Source: Methylotenera sp. (GTDB lineage: Bacteria > Pseudomonadota > Gammaproteobacteria > Burkholderiales > Methylophilaceae). From it: a stretch of DNA of 64,000 nucleotides. Numbering within the stretch: the stretch's first letter is position 1; every line of letters begins with the position of its first letter. The position numbers and the translations under genes are program-made. This document shows, in pieces, positions 3,124 through 54,079 of the stretch. Location of the stretch: NCBI RefSeq assembly GCF_029945535.1, contig NZ_JAQSCU010000018.1, positions 243,340-307,339 on the forward strand. The letters run 5' to 3'. The notes under the pieces were generated by a model that saw only the letters and a program-made list of their open reading frames with translations, made no database searches and was not told where the DNA came from.

Positions 3124-3397
3124 AAATATCCCAGACAAAAATTGCATCTAATGAGTTAAGTTCAATTAAACCGACTAATTAAAATTGGTTGTGATTGATA
3201 TTCATAATATTTGAACTATACGCCAAGTTTATGGACTTTGACTATGTCAATTAAAAGCACAATATAGGTAGCGGGCGTGCTAACAAATCTGCACTAAAAA
3301 ATCGGCTAAATATCATTACAATTTAATTACCTTTATTTAAACCTTTAAGTATTAAAACTTAGGTAAAATTCAGTCTTTACTTAATTGCGCCTCTCTC

Positions 3398-4183
3398 ATG
3401 TTCGTTCACCCTAGTTTTGATCCGATAGCAATTCATCTTGGTAAGTTTGGTATTCACTGGTACGGTCTAATGTACTTAGTTGGATTCTTAGCATTTTTAG
3501 GCCTAGGTAAATGGCAAATTAATCACAGAAAATGGCATGGCTGGACTATTGCTATGCTGGACGACGCTTTGTTTTTTGGAGCATTAGGTGTGATTCTAGG
3601 TGGCCGTCTAGGCTACGTTCTATTTTACCAATTCAGTTATTTTATCCATCATCCATTAGAGATTTTTGCCGTATGGCAAGGTGGCATGAGCTTTCATGGC
3701 GGCTTCTTAGGCGTGTTAGTCGCAATGTGGTTATTTGCGCATAAATATCAACTCAAATGGCTGAACATCATGGATTTTGTAGCACCACTGGTGCCGATTG
3801 GTTTGGGTGCTGGACGTATGGGTAACTTCATCAATGGCGAGCTTTGGGGTCGTGTCACCAATGCACAATGGGGTATGGTGTTTCCTAAAGTGGATAATCT
3901 ATTGCGTCACCCTTCGCAGCTTTATGAGTTTGGTCTTGAAGGTATCGTGTTGTTCTCAGCGCTTTGGATATACTCTTCAAAACCGCGTGAAACTGGTGCG
4001 GTTTCGGCTCTATTCTTAATTGGTTACGGCAGTTTTAGGTTTTTAGCTGAATATACCCGCGAGCCGGATGCCTACTTAGGTCTACTATCTATGGGCTTTA
4101 GCATGGGGCAATGGCTAAGTTTGCCTATGATACTGCTTGGTATCTGGATGTGGTTTCAGGCGCAAAAACAACGCTTTAATTAA
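3398..4183 (+). CDS. lgt: Prolipoprotein diacylglyceryl transferase
   Basis: Inner-membrane enzyme that moves diacylglycerol from phosphatidylglycerol to the lipobox cysteine of prolipoproteins, the first step of lipoprotein maturation. The 261-residue product is highly hydrophobic with about seven membrane segments. It carries the family signature [14 protein letters not shown] (about residues 141-154) and the SFHGGFLG segment with the essential histidine. Length is normal. The ATG at 3398 gives the usual family N-terminus but has no obvious Shine-Dalgarno sequence. It is transcribed divergently from the GGDEF-EAL gene across a 270-base gap in which I find no convincing promoter. Confidence 0.97.
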
Positions 4184-9196: not shown

Positions 9197-10444
9197 CTAG
9201 AACAACCACCAACCAAGCCACATTGCCGTCACTTGGATGACCAATCCAGGAATTACTTGAAGCGCAAATGCCTTGCCGCCGCTGACTATGGCTGCGACCA
9301 CTTTAGATAAGGCATTCACTGAAAAAGCAACCAGTATTGGAATGACAGCATTAACTGCACTTAAATTACCCGCAGCAGCTAACGAAGCCACAGAGATGGT
9401 TGAAGCATGCACATCAGCCAGCCCTGCCACTGCCGACGCGACAACTAGCCCAGCTTGACCAAACCAAGCCTTTAAGGCAGCAGAAGCAATCAGTACAACT
9501 GCAATAACCGTAGCCAAGATAAGCGCCGTTTTTACGCTAAATGAACGGGTTGGCTTAGTCATTTCTGCCCCATTGTGATGAAATGAATTAAGCGTAACGA
9601 CCAAGCCATAAATAGCAATCGAAACTCCACCAAAAATCAATGGCACTGCTAAAGCTTGTAATGTGGGTCTATGGATTGCAGCAAGTAGTAGAGTCAGTTG
9701 CAAAACCGTTGAGAGGCTGGAAAGCAAGGCGCCTGCGACCGCAGAACCAATTAAAGTTGGCATTTCTTTAGCGCGCGCTCCCATCGCACCTATCGTAGCA
9801 ATACTGGAAATAAAACCAGAGACCAAACCAACTATTGGTAAGCCTATGCGCCCACCAAGCAAACGCAAAGCCAGGTGCCCCAGCGCGCTAATAAACATCA
9901 CCAATATAACAATGAGCCAAAGGTTTCTTGGGTTTATCGCATTAAACGGCCCTATAAATTCATTCGGCACCAGTGGCAATACAATCAGCGTTGCCGCAGC
10001 AAGTATCAAAAAGTCATTTAACTCGTCCTTAGTCACCGCACCGCGTACAAAACCATGAATAGGCTCTTTCGCAGCCAATAATATTGATGCTGTTACCGCA
10101 AGACTAGCGGCTAATGATGGGGCGCTCAGGGCTAATCCACCTAAAATGACAGTGAAAATCAGCGTAATTTCAGTCGTCAGCCCGGGATGTTTATTGACTC
10201 TCATGGCATAAGAAATGGCAGCAAAAACTGTAACGCTGAGAACTGCGACGACTAACAGCCAAAAATTGATGGTTGTGCTTACTGCGCCCAGCAGTGAAGC
10301 GATAGTAAAGGTCCGTATACCCGCTAAAGACCTATCAGGATCAATACCCTTGCTGCGCTCACGCTCGGCACCTACTAAAAGCCCTATGCCTAAAGACACT
10401 GCCAAGTTAAGCCAGAGAGAGTTATCAATCAAAATATTTTCCAT
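9197..10444 (-). CDS. MgtC/SapB family membrane protein with DUF4010 domain
   Basis: Integral membrane protein of 415 residues with about a dozen hydrophobic segments. The N-terminal third has the MgtC signature: SLGIGLLVGAERER (about residues 17-30) followed by LAGIRTFTIASLLGA. The rest matches the DUF4010 part, with an internal LPIVGLVSGFISSIATIGAMG segment. MgtC proteins are linked to growth at low magnesium and to ATP-synthase control, but the role of the long DUF4010 form is not known. It follows radC by nine bases and is probably the last gene of that operon. Confidence 0.88.
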   Translation of the reverse strand: MENILIDNSLWLNLAVSLGIGLLVGAERERSKGIDPDRSLAGIRTFTIASLLGAVSTTINFWLLVVAVLSVTVFAAISYAMRVNKHPGLTTEITLIFTVILGGLALSAPSLAASLAVTASILLAAKEPIHGFVRGAVTKDELNDFLILAAATLIVLPLVPNEFIGPFNAINPRNLWLIVILVMFISALGHLALRLLGGRIGLPIVGLVSGFISSIATIGAMGARAKEMPTLIGSAVAGALLSSLSTVLQLTLLLAAIHRPTLQALAVPLIFGGVSIAIYGLVVTLNSFHHNGAEMTKPTRSFSVKTALILATVIAVVLIASAALKAWFGQAGLVVASAVAGLADVHASTISVASLAAAGNLSAVNAVIPILVAFSVNALSKVVAAIVSGGKAFALQVIPGLVIQVTAMWLGWWLF

Positions 10445-11141: not shown

Positions 11142-11906
11142 TCACTTTAACCAACCAATCTCACGAGCGGTTTTAGGGCCAATTAATGTTTGCTTCAAGC
11201 TTTTAGGAATTTCAGCTTTATTTTCACTGATAGGCGTACGACCACCCATCAACTCAGCCAAGTCTTGCGGATAACGTGGCGATTTTTCTGGCTCGGCAAA
11301 GCCATCTGGATAGATAGGCATAGAAGTAGCCAAATCGTACTTATCTGTGGCATTGAGTGTATGCAATAACTCATGTGCCAAAATCACCAAGTTCTGCTTG
11401 GAATAAGTACTGTCGCCAAACAAGTTGACGCGACCGATTCTACCTTTATTAAGCGCGGTTGAGTGACTTAAACGTGGATTAGTGACTGGGTCGTAATACA
11501 GCAAATACAGTCGAATTGCAGGTTTAACGTTGACTTTAGGACTATGGCGCCATGCGAAATATCTAAACTTTAAACTCCAAACAATCGTACCTAAAACACT
11601 TCCATCTTTAGGTGGCGCTGGTGGAATATCAATCACCTGCGCACCTAATTGCATTTCTATCGGCCGACGTAAACCCAGATGATACGGCTCAGCTTCACGT
11701 GCAAAGTATTCAGCTACAGGCTCAAAATCCTCGTGCGTTAACGTGCGTAAGTAATCACTCACTTTGGCGCTATTGTCTGCATTAACTGGGTATACCGCAA
11801 CATATAAATTGTCTTTCCACGCCAAATCGGCTTTATCCAACCAAGTGTTTTGAACCACTGTCGCTAAAATCAATAATAAAATAATGATTCTAATTTTCTT
11901 CCACAT
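11142..11906 (-). CDS. Membrane-anchored HExxH protein, putative zinc metallopeptidase
   Basis: 254 residues. A hydrophobic N-terminus (IRIIILLLILATVVQ) acts as a signal anchor, and the rest is soluble and probably periplasmic. Near residue 178 there is LAHELLHTLNATDKYD, an HExxH zinc-binding motif followed by a possible third ligand region. No named family is recognised. ATG 11906 is preferred over TTG 11912. It starts 30 bases after the dikinase-like ORF and ends 13 bases before radC, so all probably share a transcript. Whether it cleaves peptide bonds cannot be told from the sequence; the upstream neighbour, also apparently exported, suggests a joint envelope function. Confidence 0.7.
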   Translation of the reverse strand: MWKKIRIIILLLILATVVQNTWLDKADLAWKDNLYVAVYPVNADNSAKVSDYLRTLTHEDFEPVAEYFAREAEPYHLGLRRPIEMQLGAQVIDIPPAPPKDGSVLGTIVWSLKFRYFAWRHSPKVNVKPAIRLYLLYYDPVTNPRLSHSTALNKGRIGRVNLFGDSTYSKQNLVILAHELLHTLNATDKYDLATSMPIYPDGFAEPEKSPRYPQDLAELMGGRTPISENKAEIPKSLKQTLIGPKTAREIGWLK

Positions 11907-11936
11907 ACCCAATGGCTTTCGTTTTAATAAATGATT

Positions 11937-12950
11937 TTAATTTTTATAAGTCACGTATGGCCTAGCTTGCACTATCCAAAAAACATCTTGGCCGCCTTGG
12001 GTTTCTAGCACCCACTCAATATCTAACACATCAGTCTGATTAAAAATCTCGGCAACATGTTGCGCAGCTTGGCTCAATATTTTGGCACGTCTCTCAGTCA
12101 AAATCGCCTCACCTTTTGTTACAGGTCTTTCCAGCATGCCGCCTTTTGGATTAGCCACTAACATGGTCGACTCATCCGAGCGACTAATCACCCGCGTGCC
12201 ATCATTGCTCGTGTCAAACAAAATCTGCTCAGCAATTTTTTGCCCTTCTACTACGCGCATACCCAAACCCCACTTGGAATTAATAGTATAAGTAGTAGTT
12301 TGATGCCCCCAAATATCCGTGGTCAATAACACACCTGCAGCTGCGGCATTCACAGCAGTTTGTATCAATACGGCTGGGTAAACTTGCTCATGTGGAATGC
12401 CAAAATGCGCACGCTCTTCAACCGCACGTAAATTCCAAACCGATGCCCACACTTGCTTAATAGCGGCTTCCAGCGCTTTTTTATCTTTTACGTTAGGCAC
12501 GGTGTCATAAAGCCCCGCGCCGTTAAAACCTTTTAAGTCTTCGGCATTGGTTGAGCTGCGCACAAATACACCACGACCACCAAGCCGTTTTTGCCACCTT
12601 GTTTGAATCTTATTAAAAGTGTTCGCAGCAAGTGGCGAATTTGTAATAGCCAAACGAAGGGTCTCTAAACTCGCTTTACGCCAGTTTGCATCTTGTTTGA
12701 ATTTTGGATCGTTTAAAGTCTTCACAATCAATTGATCGATATGATGCTGTTTGATGTGCGCGAGATAGTAACTAAAAGGGATGCCAAAACCATCAGGGAT
12801 ATTTAAATTAGTATTAGCACGCACCATTTCACCTAAATTGCTGGTTTTAGCACCGTATTTATTAGCATCTTCTGCACTAATTTTACTTAGCGGCAAAAGT
12901 GCTGTCGTCATTAAATCTGCTGCAGGCATTACCACTGCAGCTTTAGCCAA
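11937..12950 (-). CDS. PPDK_N-type ATP-grasp domain protein (second half of an interrupted gene)
   Basis: 337 codons open after an in-frame TAG. The product matches the ATP/pyruvate-binding domain of pyruvate phosphate dikinase and PEP synthase: KTSNLGEM, PDGFGIPFSYY, FVRSSTNAEDLKGF, KQVWASVWNLRAVEER, the AGVLLTTDIW loop, and the closing DIEWVLE...IVQARP. These are the ATP-grasp landmarks in the right order. No PEP-binding TIM barrel follows. The first codon of the open stretch is a TTG without a ribosome site; ATG 12929 lies just before the conserved core and could serve for reinitiation. In frame with 12981-14042, with which it would form one protein of about 700 residues. Confidence 0.75.
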   Translation of the reverse strand: MAKAAVVMPAADLMTTALLPLSKISAEDANKYGAKTSNLGEMVRANTNLNIPDGFGIPFSYYLAHIKQHHIDQLIVKTLNDPKFKQDANWRKASLETLRLAITNSPLAANTFNKIQTRWQKRLGGRGVFVRSSTNAEDLKGFNGAGLYDTVPNVKDKKALEAAIKQVWASVWNLRAVEERAHFGIPHEQVYPAVLIQTAVNAAAAGVLLTTDIWGHQTTTYTINSKWGLGMRVVEGQKIAEQILFDTSNDGTRVISRSDESTMLVANPKGGMLERPVTKGEAILTERRAKILSQAAQHVAEIFNQTDVLDIEWVLETQGGQDVFWIVQARPYVTYKN

Positions 12951-12980
12951 CTTTGCATTTTTATGCTGCGTAATTTCTGC

Positions 12981-12983
12981 CTA
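12981..12983 (-). other. In-frame TAG splitting the dikinase-like gene
   Basis: The codons on the minus strand read GAG GCA ACA TAG GCA GAA ATT, and the frame then stays open through the whole ATP-grasp domain to 11937. Both halves are free of other stops and keep normal domain sequence. Nonsense mutation, stop-codon readthrough, two-subunit translation and a base-call error all fit. Confidence 0.85.
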
Positions 12984-14042
12984 TGTTGCCTCACGCAAGG
13001 CGTAACCTGCCTCCGTGATACTATAAAACACTTGCTTACCATCGAAATTCTTAAACTCATTGACGGCACTTTTAATAGTCGCATTAGGAATTCCCCAAGC
13101 ACTTGCACGCAAATTCACATGCGATAACGGCGTAGAAAACTGCGTGGTAATCACACCGGCTACTGGTGAAATGTCAGGATAACTGCTTTGTAACAACACA
13201 ATGTCATCCTCATCAAACGTTAAATTCTCAATTTGTATAGTTGGCGGCACAATGACCAGGCGACCAATCGCACTGCCCGTGTTAAACGCTTGATAAGGTA
13301 GCGATTGGTAAATTTGATTGTTATTGATGGTTTGAATATGAAAGGGTTTTAACTGACTGGCCACGTGCTCTTGCTCAGATGAGTCTGGTCTAAACACCAG
13401 TGGTGCAATGGTAAACGTTTGCTGCAAACGCTTATAAGCCAGCTGAATATCCGGCGCTTGAATAGTATCGCCTTCCCAAAATGAGAAAGTCCATAAGTCA
13501 CGAGGCGTCGCACTCGCATCTGGTTTAGGAGGTTCTAGCTTAGGGTAGTGCGTTAAATAGCCCAAAATAAACTGCGGCTTTTTCGTACTGTAATTACGGT
13601 TATAGGCTTTCATATTGGCTGCCGTACGCGGTATTTTTTGCAAATAATCCACTACAAAATCGGCATGCAACATAAACACATTGCTATCAACAAAGTAAAT
13701 TTTATTGGTTTTCAGATCAATCACAAACTTAGTAAATTCAGCATCACGTAGCGGTTTACTTAGCTGTTTCCAAGTGGCCATATCTCGCACTTCAGCTTTC
13801 CACACTCGGCCAGAAGGCACTTCAGCGGGTGGCTTTGTATGTGTGCAATCGCTACACATAATGCCAGCAGGCGCTTGCTGAGAAGTTAACTCATGGTTTT
13901 CAACTGAGTTCATCAGCGCTGGACTCATACGCCGCGCCTCAGCATAGCTCGCACCAAGTAGCATACTTGCACACAGCACAAGCACCCATGTTAAACTTGA
14001 AGTTATATTTGAAATTTTGAGCAACTTTATTGTTTTTAGCAT
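12981..14042 (-). CDS. Exported protein with PEP-utilizer phosphohistidine domain (first half of an interrupted gene)
   Basis: 353 residues. A signal peptide is evident: LKTIKLLK, a hydrophobic core LTWVLVLCASMLLGA, and a probable cut after SYA. A CxxC pair (MCSDC) follows near residue 65. The C-terminal 80 residues match a PEP-utilizing mobile domain, with the phosphohistidine-type motif TPLSHVNLRASAWGIPN. Phosphohistidine before ATP-grasp is the order of alpha-glucan water dikinases, and SHVxxRA resembles their motif. The frame stops at TAG 12983-12981 and the ATP-grasp part continues in the same frame. The ATG at 14042 is preferred to TTG 14048. Its start lies 14 bases from the divergent coaBC start. 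Confidence 0.72.
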   Translation of the reverse strand: MLKTIKLLKISNITSSLTWVLVLCASMLLGASYAEARRMSPALMNSVENHELTSQQAPAGIMCSDCTHTKPPAEVPSGRVWKAEVRDMATWKQLSKPLRDAEFTKFVIDLKTNKIYFVDSNVFMLHADFVVDYLQKIPRTAANMKAYNRNYSTKKPQFILGYLTHYPKLEPPKPDASATPRDLWTFSFWEGDTIQAPDIQLAYKRLQQTFTIAPLVFRPDSSEQEHVASQLKPFHIQTINNNQIYQSLPYQAFNTGSAIGRLVIVPPTIQIENLTFDEDDIVLLQSSYPDISPVAGVITTQFSTPLSHVNLRASAWGIPNATIKSAVNEFKNFDGKQVFYSITEAGYALREAT

Positions 14043-15280: not shown

Positions 15281-15345
15281 CTTCATTGCTTTGATCTATA
15301 AGGCAATATATCATGCGGCCTTTCCAAAAATGAATGCACTGCACC

Positions 15346-17517
15346 ATGAAAATAAAATCGCTCAAAATAAAATCATTTAGTAGAAAACCGTTGTTTATAT
15401 TAATTGCAGCGATCGTTTCCCCACAAGTCTATGCTGAAGACACCATATCACTTGCACCTGTAGTTGTTACCGCTACTAGAACTGAACAAAGCAGCTTTGA
15501 TTTACCTGTCGCTATTGACGTCGTAGAGAAAAAAGACATTCAAGACGGTCAGCTGCAAATGCTACTTTCTGAAAGCTTAATCCGCGTACCTGGCATTACT
15601 GCGCAAAACCGCAACAATCAAGCTCAAGATCCGCAGATCTCAAGTCGGGGCTTTGGCTCACGTTCCAGCTTTGGCGTTCGTGGCATTCGTGTATATGTAG
15701 ATGGCATCCCTTTGACCATGCCTGATGGTCAAGGCCAACCTGGTATAGTTGATTTGTCAGCGATTAAAAGTATTGAAGTCATGCGTGGGCCATTTTCAGC
15801 ACTTTACGGCAACTCCTCTGGAGGCGTGATTCAGATGCTATCTGAGGATGCACCCAAATCACTCGAAGTTGGAGGCACCGTAATGTTTGGTAGCGACAAC
15901 ACCAAACGCCAAGTCCTAAAAGCGTCAGGCACAACAGAAAATATCGAATATTTACTCGATGCCTCTAATTTTGAAACGGATAGTTACCGCGACCACGGCG
16001 CAGGTAAAAAACAAGCTGCAACGGCTAAATTTAAAATTAACTTTAGTGAAGATACCAAGCTCACTACATTAGTTAATTGGTTTGACCAGACGGCTCAAGA
16101 TCCGCTTGGGCTTGATAGAGCTAGAGCATTTAATAGTAGCACTCGTGATTCTGCAGTGCCAGCAGCTAACTTTGCAAATACCAGCGTAAAACGTGACCAT
16201 ACGCAAATTGGCTTCTACTTTGAGCATGCTTTTGATGACCAAAATAAAATTGTCTTGGCCCCATATGTTGGCTCACGTAGCAATGCACAAATTTTAACAA
16301 CTACGGCTTTAGCAACAAAACTCACGGCGACTTCCTGCACGGCCTCTGGCTCATCGCAAGGTACATGTGCCAGACTAAGTGAAATTGATCGCGACTTTTA
16401 CGGCATGGATGCGCATTGGGATAACAATGGCAAGGTTGGCAACATGCCTTATAACCTGACATTTGGCCTTAATTATGGCAAACAAAACGATGCCAGATTG
16501 GATACCAATATTCTTGTTAATGGCGTGATATCCGCTGTAAAAAATAGGGATGAAGACAATATTGCACATAATTTTGATCAATATTTACAAGGCAAGTTGA
16601 GTGTTCTTGATAATGTAGACTTACATGCTGGTGTGCGTCATACCAATGTACAACTTGAAGTGAAAGATCAGTTGCCGCTCAATGGTAATAACAGCGGCGC
16701 TGTGGAATATCAAAAAACCACACCAGTGATTGGCGCAATCTGGAAAGTGACGCCTATTTTTAATGTTTATGCAAACTACGGTAAAGGTTTTGAAACGCCG
16801 ACCTTCGTAGAGGCGGCATTTGACAATGTAACTTCAGGTGCAGCAAGCAAGCCAAACCTTTCTCTAAAAGCAGCACAAAGCCAAAATTACGAAATTGGTT
16901 TAAAAGCCTTTATTGAGGACAACACACAAGCTAATTTTAATATATTTAAAGTGAATACCGAAAATGAGCTTGTCACCAAACAAACCGTAGCAGGCCGCTC
17001 AAGTTATCAAAATGCTGGTCACACACAACGTACTGGTGCAGAGCTTTCTATTGACTCTCATTGGGCACATGACATTTCAACGTACTTTTCATACACTTTA
17101 CTAAACGCCAAGTTCGAAGATCCTTTCACTACAGTAACTAACGCTGCTGGCGCCACAGGCATAGTCAATGCCGGCAACAAAATCCCTGGTACCTACAAAA
17201 CACAGGTTTATGGCGAGGTCGCTTGGAAGTACGCGCCGATGGGCTTTAGCACGGCGCTCGAAGCTCGCTTCAATAACAAAGTTTACGTAAATGATATCAA
17301 CAGTGACGCTGCGCCTTCATACACTATTTTTAACATTCGAGCAGGTTTCGAACAAAATCTTGCTAGCTGGAGCCTAAAAGAATATGTGCGGGTAGAAAAT
17401 ATTGCAGACAAAGACTATATTGGGTCGGTTCGTGTAAATGATGGCAATGCACTATTTTTTGAACCAGGGGCAGGTAGAAACTATTTGCTTGGTTTAAGTG
17501 CAAACTATAAATTTTAG
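15346..17517 (+). CDS. TonB-dependent outer-membrane receptor
   Basis: 723-residue outer-membrane beta-barrel receptor driven by TonB. A basic N-terminus and hydrophobic stretch (PLFILIAAIVSPQVYA) form the signal peptide. A TonB-box-like APVVVTATRTE follows. The plug domain has the landmarks SSRGFGSRSSFGVRGIRVY, VDGIPLTMPDGQGQP and IEVMRGPFSALYGNSSGG. The barrel closes with a C-terminal Phe (LSANYKF), typical for BamA-dependent insertion. The substrate cannot be told; ferric siderophore, copper or cobalamin are possible, and no riboswitch or clear Fur box is visible upstream. The ATG at 15346 gives the cleaner signal peptide; 15334 is an alternative. The gene stands between coaBC and dut, which are often adjacent. 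Confidence 0.9.
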   Translation: MKIKSLKIKSFSRKPLFILIAAIVSPQVYAEDTISLAPVVVTATRTEQSSFDLPVAIDVVEKKDIQDGQLQMLLSESLIRVPGITAQNRNNQAQDPQISSRGFGSRSSFGVRGIRVYVDGIPLTMPDGQGQPGIVDLSAIKSIEVMRGPFSALYGNSSGGVIQMLSEDAPKSLEVGGTVMFGSDNTKRQVLKASGTTENIEYLLDASNFETDSYRDHGAGKKQAATAKFKINFSEDTKLTTLVNWFDQTAQDPLGLDRARAFNSSTRDSAVPAANFANTSVKRDHTQIGFYFEHAFDDQNKIVLAPYVGSRSNAQILTTTALATKLTATSCTASGSSQGTCARLSEIDRDFYGMDAHWDNNGKVGNMPYNLTFGLNYGKQNDARLDTNILVNGVISAVKNRDEDNIAHNFDQYLQGKLSVLDNVDLHAGVRHTNVQLEVKDQLPLNGNNSGAVEYQKTTPVIGAIWKVTPIFNVYANYGKGFETPTFVEAAFDNVTSGAASKPNLSLKAAQSQNYEIGLKAFIEDNTQANFNIFKVNTENELVTKQTVAGRSSYQNAGHTQRTGAELSIDSHWAHDISTYFSYTLLNAKFEDPFTTVTNAAGATGIVNAGNKIPGTYKTQVYGEVAWKYAPMGFSTALEARFNNKVYVNDINSDAAPSYTIFNIRAGFEQNLASWSLKEYVRVENIADKDYIGSVRVNDGNALFFEPGAGRNYLLGLSANYKF

Positions 17518-18787: not shown

Positions 18788-20056
18788 CTAAGCGGACATT
18801 TCAGCCAACTTAGCGGCAGCATCCGTCTTAGCAAAGACAATGCCGTTAGCTTCAAAGGCTCGCCATATTGATAAGTAAAGCGAAGACTGTAGCGCACTTC
18901 CTCCTGACTCTGGGTTCATTACCCATACGGTCAGACTTAAATCAATGCCGTTCTCGGTAAATCCTTTTACTAGCACGTCTGGCGACGGTTTCATTAACAC
19001 TCGGTCCTGTTGCATCGCCTCATCATGCATCAATGCCACAGCGCGATCTAAGTTGCTCTTATAGCTAATACTCAAGTTAATTTGCACACGACCTTTATGC
19101 TCAATCAAAGAATGATTTATAACTGCAGTCGTTACTAGCGCTTCATTAGGGATAATCACATGTGTACCATCTTGCTTTGCTAGAATCATATAGCGGGAGC
19201 GCAAGTCGTTAATTACACCATAATGCTTATCGACTGTAATCACATCGCCAATTTGCATTGATTTATCGAGCAGAATGATAAAACCACTCACATAGTTACT
19301 GGCAATCCGTTGCAAACCTAAACCCAAGCCCACACCTAACGCACCACCAAAAACCGAAAGAAAGGTAATATCCAAACCTACTGCTGAAAGTGCGATTAAT
19401 AGGGCTATCGTTAATAAAAGCATCCGTAATAATTTTGTCATTACTACGCGTAGATTAACGCTCACATGCTCGGCGCGCATGACTTTATTTTCTATAAATC
19501 GGCTAATCCAAAGCGCGATGAAAATGGTGACGAGTATGGTAAGAACTGCCTGCAACACCAGAAGCAAATCAATTGAGTGCTTGCCTATCTTAAATTTAAT
19601 ATCTTCAAGCACCTGAAACATCTCAGGTAACAGTCCGCTCAGATGAAGCGCAAGCACTACCCATATTGAGGTAGATATCGTATTTTCTAAGGTTTTAAGC
19701 AGCCCGCCAGGTGCAACAATGTAGCGTATCGCATATACAGCTAACCTGATAATGGCCATGGCAAATAACAATGTACTGGTTAATTGCAGCAAACTAGTAT
19801 GTTGCCAATGCGACAATATTATCTTGCCGATCTGAACAAATATAAGTGTAGACAAAGGAAATAAAACACGATTTACACCGCCAATCCCCAACTTCCACTT
19901 TTCTGGTGCATTGTGCATTACGTAAGCACGTAATGCGCCATTAACGGTCCAAGCTATACTAGATGCAACAGCAATTATCGTAAGCTCCCACAGAGCAGCT
20001 GTGGTAGATAAATCCGCTAACAACTCTTTCCACAATAAATGTATTTCTGGGTTCAT
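18788..20056 (-). CDS. MscS-family mechanosensitive ion channel
   Basis: 422-residue inner-membrane protein. Several hydrophobic segments in the first 200 residues precede the pore helix and beta domain of MscS channels. The pore-lining region GGALGVGLGLGLQRIASNYVSG (about residues 235-256) has the Gly/Ala packing pattern, followed by DKSMQIGDVITV and IIPNEALVTTAVINHS. Such channels open on membrane tension to release solutes at hypo-osmotic shock. The extra N-terminal segments put it with the larger MscS homologues rather than E. coli MscS itself. It lies 66 bases after the CorA-like gene on the same strand. Confidence 0.92.
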   Translation of the reverse strand: MNPEIHLLWKELLADLSTTAALWELTIIAVASSIAWTVNGALRAYVMHNAPEKWKLGIGGVNRVLFPLSTLIFVQIGKIILSHWQHTSLLQLTSTLLFAMAIIRLAVYAIRYIVAPGGLLKTLENTISTSIWVVLALHLSGLLPEMFQVLEDIKFKIGKHSIDLLLVLQAVLTILVTIFIALWISRFIENKVMRAEHVSVNLRVVMTKLLRMLLLTIALLIALSAVGLDITFLSVFGGALGVGLGLGLQRIASNYVSGFIILLDKSMQIGDVITVDKHYGVINDLRSRYMILAKQDGTHVIIPNEALVTTAVINHSLIEHKGRVQINLSISYKSNLDRAVALMHDEAMQQDRVLMKPSPDVLVKGFTENGIDLSLTVWVMNPESGGSALQSSLYLSIWRAFEANGIVFAKTDAAAKLAEMSA

Positions 20057-25361: not shown

Positions 25362-26687
25362 CTACTTTTGGGTATTGCCTTTAAAGTTAGCTTTTTTAAG
25401 CAGACCTTCATATTGATTCGACATTAAATGTGACTGAACTTGCGTCATAAAATCCATCGTAACAACAACAATAATTAACAATGATGTACCGCCAAAATAA
25501 AACGGCGTATTAAATTTCAATCTTAAAAACTCTGGCAACAAACAAACTAAAGTAATGTATATAGCGCCGATTAATGTTAAACGACCCATAATTCTGTCGA
25601 TGTATTTTGCAGTTTGGTCGCCAGGACGAATTCCAGGAACAAATGCACCACTTTTCTTTAAGTTATCAGCGGTGTCTTTTGGGTTAAACTGCAATGCAGT
25701 GTAAAAGAAACAAAAGAACACAATAGCTACAGTAAAGAATAAAATGTAAATCGGCTGCCCTGGTGACAAAGCATTAGAAATATCTTTTAACCAATACATA
25801 CTTTCTTTACCGCTAAACCAGTTTGCCAACGTTGCTGGGAACAAAATAATACTAGAAGCAAAAATTGGAGGAATCACACCCGCCATATTCAACTTCAACG
25901 GTAAATGCGTAGTTTGCCCACCGTATACTTTATTTCCAACCTGACGCTTAGCATAATTCACTGTGATCTTACGCTGGCCACGCTCTACAAATACCACTAA
26001 TGCAGTCACCAAAACTATAGTCACTAGCAAAAAGAATAGAATTAAAGGTCCTGCGGCGCCAAACCCACCTGAATTAGCCATCTCTACAGAAGACCCAATA
26101 GCTTTTGGCAAACCTGCAACAATACCTGCGAAAATAATAATCGAAATACCATTACCAATTCCACGTTCAGTTATTTGCTCACCTAACCACATGATAAACA
26201 TCGTACCGCTAACTAAGGTAATCACTGCAGTTAGCCTGAACGCCAAACCAGGGTCTAAAACCAATCCTGGCTGACCTTCAAGTGCGATCGCAATACCTAA
26301 GGCCTGAAACGCTGCAAGAACCACCGTGCCGTAGCGAGTCCACTTGGTAATTGTTCTACGTCCAGCTTCACCTTCTTTTTTCAACTGTTCTAACTTTGGT
26401 GAAACTGCTGACATCAACTGCATAATAATAGATGCAGAAATGTACGGCATAATACCTAAAGCAAACACTGTGAATCTTGATAGTGCGCCTCCAGAGAACA
26501 TGTTAAACATGCCTAGGATGCCGCCACTTTGTGATTCAAAAAGCTTAGCTAAAACTACAGGATCAATACCCGGAACAGGAACATGAGCCCCTAAACGGTA
26601 TACGATTAATGCACCAAGTACAAAAAGTAGGCGACTTTTAAGTTCGCCCATTTTTGACGCTGTTTTTAATAAACTATCTTGTGCCAA
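25362..26687 (-). CDS. secY: Protein translocase subunit SecY
   Basis: 441 residues with ten membrane segments, forming the protein-conducting channel with SecE and SecG. Recognisable parts are the start [46 protein letters not shown]-like [20 protein letters not shown], and the cytoplasmic loop with [17 protein letters not shown]. The last large loop has [16 protein letters not shown]. Located after rplO in the spc operon, as in most bacteria; secE lies 26 kb away in the same block. Confidence 0.98.
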
Positions 26688-36155: not shown

Positions 36156-37346
36156 CTATTCAATAATCTTAGCCACCACACCAGCACCTACAGTACGGCC
36201 ACCTTCACGAATAGCGAAGCGTAAGCCTTCTTCCATCGCGATTGGTGAGATCAATGTCACTGTGATTGATACGTTATCACCTGGCATGACCATTTCTGTG
36301 CCTGCTGGCAATTCTACTGCGCCCGTTACGTCTGTGGTACGGAAGTAGAATTGTGGACGGTAACCTTGGAAGAATGGTGTGTGACGACCACCTTCATCTT
36401 TACCTAGCACGTAGATTTCTGCTGTGAATTTTGTGTGTGGTTTGATTGAGCCTGATTTAGCTAATACTTGACCACGTTCGATGTCTTCACGTTTTGTACC
36501 ACGTAGTAATACACCTACGTTATCACCAGCCATACCTTGGTCTAGTAATTTACGGAACATTTCAACACCAGTACAGGTTGTTTTTACAGTTGGTTTTAAA
36601 CCAACAATTTCAATTTCTTCACCGACTTTGATGATACCGCGTTCAATACGGCCTGTTACCACAGTACCACGACCAGAGATTGAGAATACGTCTTCAACTG
36701 GCATTAGGAATGTACCGTCGATTGCACGTTCTGGCATTGGGATGTAGTTATCTAACGCATCTGCTAGACGGAAGATTGATGGCTCGCCGATTTCTGTTTG
36801 GTCGCCTTCTAATGCTGCACGTGCTGAGCCTGTGATGATTGGTGTATCGTCACCCGGGAAGTCGTATTTGCTGAGCAAGTCACGTACTTCCATTTCAACG
36901 AGCTCTAATAACTCAGCATCGTCTACTAAGTCTGCTTTGTTTAGGTAAACCACGATATAAGGAACGCCAACTTGACGTGCTAATAGGATGTGTTCACGTG
37001 TTTGTGGCATAGGACCATCAGCGGCTGAACATACTAAGATCGCGCCGTCCATTTGTGCTGCGCCGGTGATCATGTTTTTAACATAGTCGGCATGGCCTGG
37101 ACAGTCTACGTGTGCGTAGTGGCGGTTAGCTGTTTCGTATTCAACGTGGGCTGTGTTAATGGTAATACCACGTGCTTTTTCTTCTGGTGCTGCGTCAATT
37201 TGATCGTAGGCTTTTGCTTCGCCACCGAATTTTTTAGACAGGATTGTGGTAATCGCTGCTGTTAGTGTTGTTTTACCATGGTCAACGTGGCCAATTGTGC
37301 CTACGTTAACGTGCGGCTTGGTCCGCTCAAATTTACCTTTTGCCAT
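36156..37346 (-). CDS. tuf: Elongation factor Tu, copy 1
   Basis: 396-residue GTPase that brings aminoacyl-tRNA to the ribosome. P-loop GHVDHGKTT (residues 19-27), effector region with [33 protein letters not shown], and domain 2-3 motifs ([23 protein letters not shown]). The protein is identical to the copy at 52889-54079 and the DNA nearly so. Located between fusA and rpsJ as in the str operon. Confidence 0.99.
36199..37346 (-). repeat. 1.15-kb direct repeat, tuf copy 1 arm
   Basis: Apparently identical in DNA to 52932-54079, same orientation, 16.7 kb apart. The match stops at the start codon on one side and at the fourth synonymous difference (36198) on the other. This is the pattern left by gene conversion confined to coding sequence. 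Confidence 0.9.
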
Positions 37347-52888: not shown

Positions 52889-54079
52889 CTATTCAATAAT
52901 TTTAGCCACAACACCAGCACCCACAGTACGACCACCTTCACGAATAGCGAAGCGTAAGCCTTCTTCCATCGCGATTGGTGAGATCAATGTCACTGTGATT
53001 GATACGTTATCACCTGGCATGACCATTTCTGTGCCTGCTGGCAATTCTACTGCGCCCGTTACGTCTGTGGTACGGAAGTAGAATTGTGGACGGTAACCTT
53101 GGAAGAATGGTGTGTGACGACCACCTTCATCTTTACCTAGCACGTAGATTTCTGCTGTGAATTTTGTGTGTGGTTTGATTGAGCCTGATTTAGCTAATAC
53201 TTGACCACGTTCGATGTCTTCACGTTTTGTACCACGTAGTAATACACCTACGTTATCACCAGCCATACCTTGGTCTAGTAATTTACGGAACATTTCAACA
53301 CCAGTACAGGTTGTTTTTACAGTTGGTTTTAAACCAACAATTTCAATTTCTTCACCGACTTTGATGATACCGCGTTCAATACGGCCTGTTACCACAGTAC
53401 CACGACCAGAGATTGAGAATACGTCTTCAACTGGCATTAGGAATGTACCGTCGATTGCACGTTCTGGCATTGGGATGTAGTTATCTAACGCATCTGCTAG
53501 ACGGAAGATTGATGGCTCGCCGATTTCTGTTTGGTCGCCTTCTAATGCTGCACGTGCTGAGCCTGTGATGATTGGTGTATCGTCACCCGGGAAGTCGTAT
53601 TTGCTGAGCAAGTCACGTACTTCCATTTCAACGAGCTCTAATAACTCAGCATCGTCTACTAAGTCTGCTTTGTTTAGGTAAACCACGATATAAGGAACGC
53701 CAACTTGACGTGCTAATAGGATGTGTTCACGTGTTTGTGGCATAGGACCATCAGCGGCTGAACATACTAAGATCGCGCCGTCCATTTGTGCTGCGCCGGT
53801 GATCATGTTTTTAACATAGTCGGCATGGCCTGGACAGTCTACGTGTGCGTAGTGGCGGTTAGCTGTTTCGTATTCAACGTGGGCTGTGTTAATGGTAATA
53901 CCACGTGCTTTTTCTTCTGGTGCTGCGTCAATTTGATCGTAGGCTTTTGCTTCGCCACCGAATTTTTTAGACAGGATTGTGGTAATCGCTGCTGTTAGTG
54001 TTGTTTTACCATGGTCAACGTGGCCAATTGTGCCTACGTTAACGTGCGGCTTGGTCCGCTCAAATTTACCTTTTGCCAT
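52889..54079 (-). CDS. tuf: Elongation factor Tu, copy 2
   Basis: 396 residues, identical in protein to copy 1. Four synonymous differences are seen in the last 43 bases of the gene, and none further on by eye. It lies behind tRNA-Thr, the tufB place in E. coli (thrU-tyrU-glyT-thrT-tufB). Ribosome site AAAGGA lies before ATG 54079. The upstream leader differs fully from that of copy 1, so the two copies can be controlled separately. Confidence 0.99.
52932..54079 (-). repeat. 1.15-kb direct repeat, tuf copy 2 arm
   Basis: Partner of 36199-37346. The flanks on both sides are unrelated between the copies. Confidence 0.9.

What the first reader, a model, noticed from the sequence alone, without database searches (positions are those of the whole stretch)
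11937..14042. One dikinase-like gene cut in two by a single in-frame TAG
Seen: 353 codons from ATG 14042, TAG at 12983-12981, then the same frame stays open for 347 codons. The first part ends in a phosphohistidine-type domain and the second is a complete-looking PPDK_N ATP-grasp domain. No other stop or frameshift is seen, and the second part has no ATG with a ribosome site near its start. Inference: the unit is one protein of about 700 residues. A recent nonsense mutation, suppression/readthrough, or reinitiation giving two subunits are all possible. Both parts still look under selection, which argues against an old pseudogene.
Basis: partly seen in the sequence, partly recalled or inferred. 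Interest (0 to 1): 0.7.

Follow-up and report, generated by a model that had tools for sequence, protein, structure and literature searches.

The report
One gene broken by single stop
A gene for a probably exported two-domain phosphate-transfer protein carries one premature stop codon between its domains, while intact relatives make it as one chain, so this is most likely a recent, ordinary loss-of-function mutation.

Summary
Eight of 8 other Methylotenera copies examined are single frames, with a sense codon at a non-conserved residue where the TAG stands. The family is a probably exported phosphohistidine-like + PPDK_N protein, also in Acidobacteriota, Deltaproteobacteria/Myxococcota and Bacteroidota. 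Of 80 related loci (six of them Methylotenera), 76 are one uninterrupted frame, 2 are cut by contig ends, and 2 (Flavobacterium) carry lone stops of other kinds at other places. Release factor 1 is intact and TAG ends ordinary genes; no UAG-reading tRNA was found in an incomplete search. The window copy keeps all 47 family-invariant residues and low dN/dS on both sides; a marginal excess of amino-acid changes on its branch fits a young stop. Best reading: a recent nonsense mutation that parts an exported domain from its ATP-grasp domain and probably inactivates the protein; assembly error comes next. Readthrough is possible but unsupported. Two-subunit expression is unlikely, because only the first half has an export signal.

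The parts
12984..14042 (-). first part of the interrupted gene: export signal, N-terminal domain, phosphohistidine-like domain (353 codons)
   Evidence: aligns with residues of one 704-aa open frame in G013
13935..14042 (-). probable Sec signal sequence (hydrophobic core, ...AEA|RR)
   Evidence: read by eye; hydrophobic N-terminus in 74 of 80 related loci by a crude hydropathy test, no signal-peptide program
12990..13295 (-). phosphohistidine (swivel)-like domain; conserved His codon at 13121-13119 in motif STPLSH
   Evidence: limits carried over from the model of L031; sub-threshold Pfam hit; His invariant in the 19-row alignment
12981..12983 (-). in-frame TAG; corresponds to residue 355 of L031, first residue of the predicted inter-domain helix
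11937..12980 (-). second part of the same frame, ending in TAA: ATP-grasp part (347 codons)
11949..12857 (-). PPDK_N ATP-grasp domain
   Evidence: Pfam PF01326, E 1.1e-51, residues 42-344 of the second part
11142..11912 (-). downstream neighbour, possible M6-type metalloprotease (HELLHT), not split; beside the gene in 8 of 9 Methylotenera copies
   Evidence: weak NCBIfam hit E 0.0035, 17.3 bits against a cut-off of 110.8; neighbourhood; in 24 of 37 genus genomes including all 7 with the dikinase-like gene

Best explanation
A single-chain, probably exported protein with a phosphohistidine-like swivel domain followed by a PPDK_N ATP-grasp domain has acquired one recent nonsense codon in this strain, at a non-conserved residue at the start of the inter-domain helix. 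Termination there should give an exported fragment without the ATP-grasp domain. The rest of the message would go untranslated, or be weakly restarted in the cytoplasm without a signal. Phosphate transfer between the two domains should then be lost. Shown: the stop, the intact relatives, the conservation of both halves, an intact release factor 1. Inferred: export, enzyme activity, loss of function.
For: All six other whole genomes with the gene, of 61 searched, have it as one open frame of 684-720 aa; L035 and L036 add two intact copies. The aligned residue is E, E, E, A, S, P, S, D in the eight relatives. Family-wide, 76 of 80 loci are one uninterrupted frame. Two Flavobacterium copies carry lone stops, TGA and TAA, at unrelated positions; in a sample of 299 Flavobacterium genomes, 45 have the gene and those same two carry a stop. 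Such scatter is what sporadic inactivation gives. RF1 is intact above its cut-off. Twelve frames that I picked end in TAG in both the window and G013. Polarised changes, nonsynonymous/synonymous, are 40/62 on the window branch and 21/64 on the G013 branch (16 changes of unclear polarity left out), Fisher p 0.042, which would fit neutrality over about 13% of the branch (95% 1-26%). A published survey finds that in-frame stops in bacterial genes tend to be short-lived (PMC7918605).
Against: All 47 invariant residues are kept and dN/dS is low on both sides (0.111, 0.064), which a working product would give too. The branch excess is marginal, not significant in either half alone (p 0.13, 0.23), not corrected for testing, and partly clustered as recombination would give. 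dN/dS between two intact copies is nearly the same (G013-G003 0.102 and 0.061), so no relaxation shows there. No expression data.
Confidence: 0.73

Rival explanations
1. The base is an assembly or sequencing error and the gene is intact in the living strain.
For: One stop and nothing else wrong in 2.1 kb, all 47 invariant residues retained; low dN/dS.
Against: The genome is 99.99% complete in 19 contigs, so not evidently poor; TAG is two base changes away from the codon of the three nearest relatives. No reads were available.
Confidence: 0.12
2. The TAG is suppressed or read through often enough to make useful amounts of full-length exported protein.
For: Constraint on both sides. A published survey argues that many in-frame bacterial stops keep dN/dS below 1 and suggests readthrough (PMC7918605: abstract and first part of Results read).
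Against: The stop is in 1 of 9 Methylotenera copies, so not conserved. RF1 present. No anticodon CUA among the tRNAs read by ARAGORN at the 39 places found, nor at the single hit of a pattern search; but the list lacks a His tRNA and an Ile tRNA with GAT anticodon, so it is incomplete. Constraint may simply predate the stop.
Confidence: 0.1
3. Reinitiation makes two cooperating subunits, as in two-component dikinases such as HpeHI and PpsAB.
For: Dikinases with the ATP-grasp and swivel domains on separate chains exist (PMC12167813, passages including parts of the abstract seen). A haloarchaeal pair with this gene order is in L180. In-frame TTG, GTG and ATG occur 33, 48 and 54 nt past the stop.
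Against: Only the first half has an export signal, so the halves would end up in different compartments (inference). 76 of 80 relatives are single uninterrupted frames. The one strong ribosome site near the junction (-9.5 kcal/mol) precedes a TTG that lies upstream of the stop.
Confidence: 0.05

Closest known systems
In-frame stops in otherwise conserved bacterial genes (PMC7918605)
   Same: single nonsense codon, dN/dS below 1 on both sides
   Different: that survey's large study keeps to stops shared by orthologues of two or more species; here the stop was seen in one genome only
PEP synthase / rifampin phosphotransferase (RPH) ATP-grasp domain
   Same: PPDK_N domain; best Foldseek hits are RPH structures (5hv1 first) and PEP synthase 2ols
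   Different: order is phosphohistidine then ATP-grasp; probably exported; the second part scores far below the NCBIfam cut-offs
Two-component dikinases HpeHI, CreHI, PpsAB
   Same: ATP-grasp and swivel domains, there acting from separate chains (PMC12167813)
   Different: relatives of this gene are one chain with a probable export signal
Alpha-glucan water dikinase (plants)
   Same: phosphohistidine domain before the ATP-grasp domain (order recalled); weak GWD1_pHisD hit
   Different: hit below Pfam's cut-off; no starch-binding family among the Pfam hits

Membership tests
recent nonsense pseudogene | orthologues have a sense codon at the stop | tested here: met
   8 of 8 aligned Methylotenera copies
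recent nonsense pseudogene | stop private to one lineage | tested here: met
   1 of 9 Methylotenera copies; the two other lone stops found in the family lie elsewhere. Other strains of the same species were not available
recent nonsense pseudogene | relaxed selection after the stop arose | tested here: inconclusive
   p 0.042 overall, 0.13 and 0.23 by half; relaxed fraction 0.01-0.26
recent nonsense pseudogene | no functional product | not testable with these tools
   needs proteomics
programmed readthrough / recoding | stop conserved among orthologues | tested here: not met
programmed readthrough / recoding | suppressor tRNA or lost RF1 | tested here: inconclusive
   RF1 intact; no CUA anticodon found, but the tRNA list is incomplete
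two-component dikinase (HpeHI/PpsAB type) | domains encoded as separate genes in relatives | tested here: not met
   76 of 80 loci one uninterrupted frame
PEP synthase | curated family score | tested here: not met
   TIGR01418 147.4 bits for the second part, cut-off 739.75; none for the first part. The two parts were scanned apart
rifampin phosphotransferase | curated family score | tested here: not met
   NF041857 117.1 bits for the second part, cut-off 999; none for the first part
alpha-glucan water dikinase | GWD1_pHisD above gathering score | tested here: not met
   15.3 bits, cut-off 27; 15.7 in L031, 12.9 in L049
dikinase chemistry (works like) | motif His and ATP-grasp residues conserved | tested here: met
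   47 of 47 family-invariant residues present in the window copy; that they are the catalytic ones is by analogy, activity not tested

The most novel reading that the evidence does not exclude
The protein belongs to an uncharacterised exported dikinase-like family, in several phyla, that carries phosphohistidine chemistry and an ATP-grasp domain outside the cytoplasm. In this strain a leaky TAG between the domains would set the ratio of an exported fragment without the ATP-grasp domain to the full enzyme.
Probability: 0.05. Interest if true: 0.65.

Novelty: new member of a known kind. Interest (0 to 1): 0.27.

Why it matters
The stop looks like a young nonsense codon caught before decay, useful for dating gene loss. 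The more interesting by-product is the host gene: a family with conserved phosphohistidine and ATP-grasp motifs that mostly begins with a probable export signal, although ATP is scarce outside the cytoplasm (general knowledge). If it is exported and active, its phosphate donor is an open question.

Tried and rejected
Genetic-code change: rejected, RF1 intact and TAG ends ordinary genes. Suppressor tRNA: 39 tRNA matches, none read as CUA by ARAGORN; list incomplete; a CTA-anticodon pattern gave one place where ARAGORN sees no tRNA. Natural split into two genes in relatives: not seen among the 80 loci. The Streptomyces plasmid hit with two names is one full-length gene overlapping its neighbour by 4 bases; the Natribaculum pair has a PEP-synthase-type His motif and is more distant.

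I therefore claim no excess of lone stops in the family. No viral contig matched. The VIA-align library was not available. A worry that L042 and L006 are one contig (equal stated lengths) was checked and dropped: no shared 60-mers.

Papers. PMC12167813: passages. PMC7918605: outline with abstract, and part 1 of the Results. PMC4319602 (draft genomes of Lake Washington Methylophilaceae): whole text, nothing on this gene. All others: search listings only. Searches that bear on an exported dikinase family listed nothing evidently about it; several listings were capped at ten, so this is weak evidence of absence.

Full report
On the minus strand, ATG 14042 opens 353 codons, TAG stands at 12983-12981, and the same frame continues for 347 codons to TAA. 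Pfam finds PPDK_N in the second part (E 1.1e-51) and, below its cut-off, a phosphohistidine-like domain at the end of the first.

Relatives settle the unit. The window's genome (G000, 3.0 Mb, 19 contigs) is in one genus with G003, whose contig is a record titled Methylotenera. Among 61 whole genomes searched with the second part, best matches at 71% identity or more occur in G000 and six others, all of the same genus; the remaining genomes have matches of 33% or less, or none. The first part is found in the same seven only. In the six others both parts lie in one open frame of 684-720 aa. With L035 and L036, eight intact copies were aligned. The column of the TAG holds Glu in the three nearest and Ala, Ser, Pro, Ser, Asp in the rest, so no particular residue is required there.

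The family is wider. A scan of genome contigs, one genome per species, confirmed 89 loci and kept the best 80: Methylotenera (six, four of them the same as copies above), Pyrinomonas and other Acidobacteriota, Deltaproteobacteria, Enhygromyxa, and mostly Flavobacterium. Of the 80, 76 are one uninterrupted frame over both domains, two are cut by contig ends (L043, L092), and two have a lone in-frame stop: L050 (TGA, just after the signal sequence) and L051 (TAA, before the phosphohistidine domain). In 299 Flavobacterium genomes 45 have the gene, and 2 of 45 carry a stop, the same two. The control for this rate failed, so no excess is claimed. Seventy-four of 80 have a strongly hydrophobic N-terminus by a crude hydropathy test; the six exceptions (L040, L043, L050, L051, L062, L092) have a cut, interrupted or doubtful start. 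Seventy-seven of 80 have the (T/S)PL(S/A)H motif and 80 of 80 the ATP-grasp RSSxNxED motif in the stretch taken.

AlphaFold2 on the intact relative L031 (19 rows, mean pLDDT 81.7, pTM 0.76) places the column of the TAG at residue 355, the first residue of a helix (355-366) that follows the last strand of the phosphohistidine-like domain and leads to the ATP-grasp domain. Foldseek's best matches in the PDB are rifampin phosphotransferase and PEP synthase, over about 330 columns.

Selection. Between window and G013, dN/dS (NG86) is 0.111 before and 0.064 after the stop. Twenty-one neighbouring genes give 0.005-0.086, so the first half lies above all of them; but the intact pair G013-G003 gives nearly the same values for this gene, 0.102 and 0.061. 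All 47 invariant residues of the family alignment are kept. Polarised by G003, the window branch has 40 nonsynonymous to 62 synonymous changes and the G013 branch 21 to 64, with 16 changes of unclear polarity left out; Fisher p is 0.042 overall, 0.13 and 0.23 for the halves. If read as relaxation this fits neutrality over about 13% of the branch, 95% range 1-26%; had the whole branch been neutral, about ten further stops would be expected, and none is seen. Against the relaxation reading, several changes cluster and resemble other Methylotenera copies, as recombination would give, and synonymous divergence from G013 doubles from the 5' to the 3' half (0.28 to 0.59).

Translation. RF1 is intact above its cut-off. 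Twelve of 12 frames that I picked end in TAG in both window and G013, for instance 9197-10444, 18788-20056 and 25362-26687. At 39 tRNA places ARAGORN reads no CUA anticodon, but no His tRNA and no Ile tRNA with GAT anticodon is on the list, so the search was incomplete. Among G013 frames over 200 aa compared with the window, this gene is the only one whose window counterpart has a stop well inside; one other has a stop within its last four codons. In-frame possible restart codons lie 33, 48 and 54 nt past the stop with weak ribosome pairing.

Conclusion. The most economical account is a young nonsense mutation in one strain's copy of a patchily distributed gene (7 of the 37 genus genomes searched), with an assembly error as the next possibility. 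Reinitiation would leave the ATP-grasp part in the cytoplasm while the first part is exported, so the precedent of two-component dikinases (PMC12167813, passages) does not transfer easily. Readthrough, proposed in general for such stops (PMC7918605, abstract and part of Results), is not excluded; the same paper notes that such stops tend to persist only briefly.

Noticed in passing
L050 (stop at 3152), L051 (stop at 3575): Two Flavobacterium copies of the same family also carry one lone in-frame stop (TGA, TAA) at other places.
   Followed up: partly
L031-L110: The family combines phosphohistidine and ATP-grasp motifs with a probable export signal in 74 of 80 loci; the phosphate donor outside the cytoplasm is unexplained.
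   Followed up: partly
window 11937-14042: Synonymous divergence from the nearest relative doubles between the 5' and 3' halves (0.28 to 0.59), perhaps recombination within the gene.
   Followed up: no
window 11142-11912: Downstream gene with HELLHT motif and a weak M6 metalloprotease hit; in 24 of 37 genus genomes, including all 7 with the dikinase-like gene; not found beside it in L036.
   Followed up: partly
window 15334-17517: A long gene (TonB-receptor-like by recall) only 70% identical to its counterpart in G013, while most neighbours in the first 30 kb are above 90%.
   Followed up: no
window 36156-37346 and 52889-54079: Two 396-aa frames that match the same G013 frame at 100% (EF-Tu by recall).
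   Followed up: no
L178 2498-4510, L179 2420-4426: Streptomyces plasmid relatives (25-27% identity), one chain, no export signal seen by eye, beside an ATP-grasp gene and an MFS transporter.
   Followed up: partly
L180 1-2937: Haloarchaeal plasmid with a phosphohistidine-ending gene followed by a separate PPDK_N gene.
   Followed up: partly
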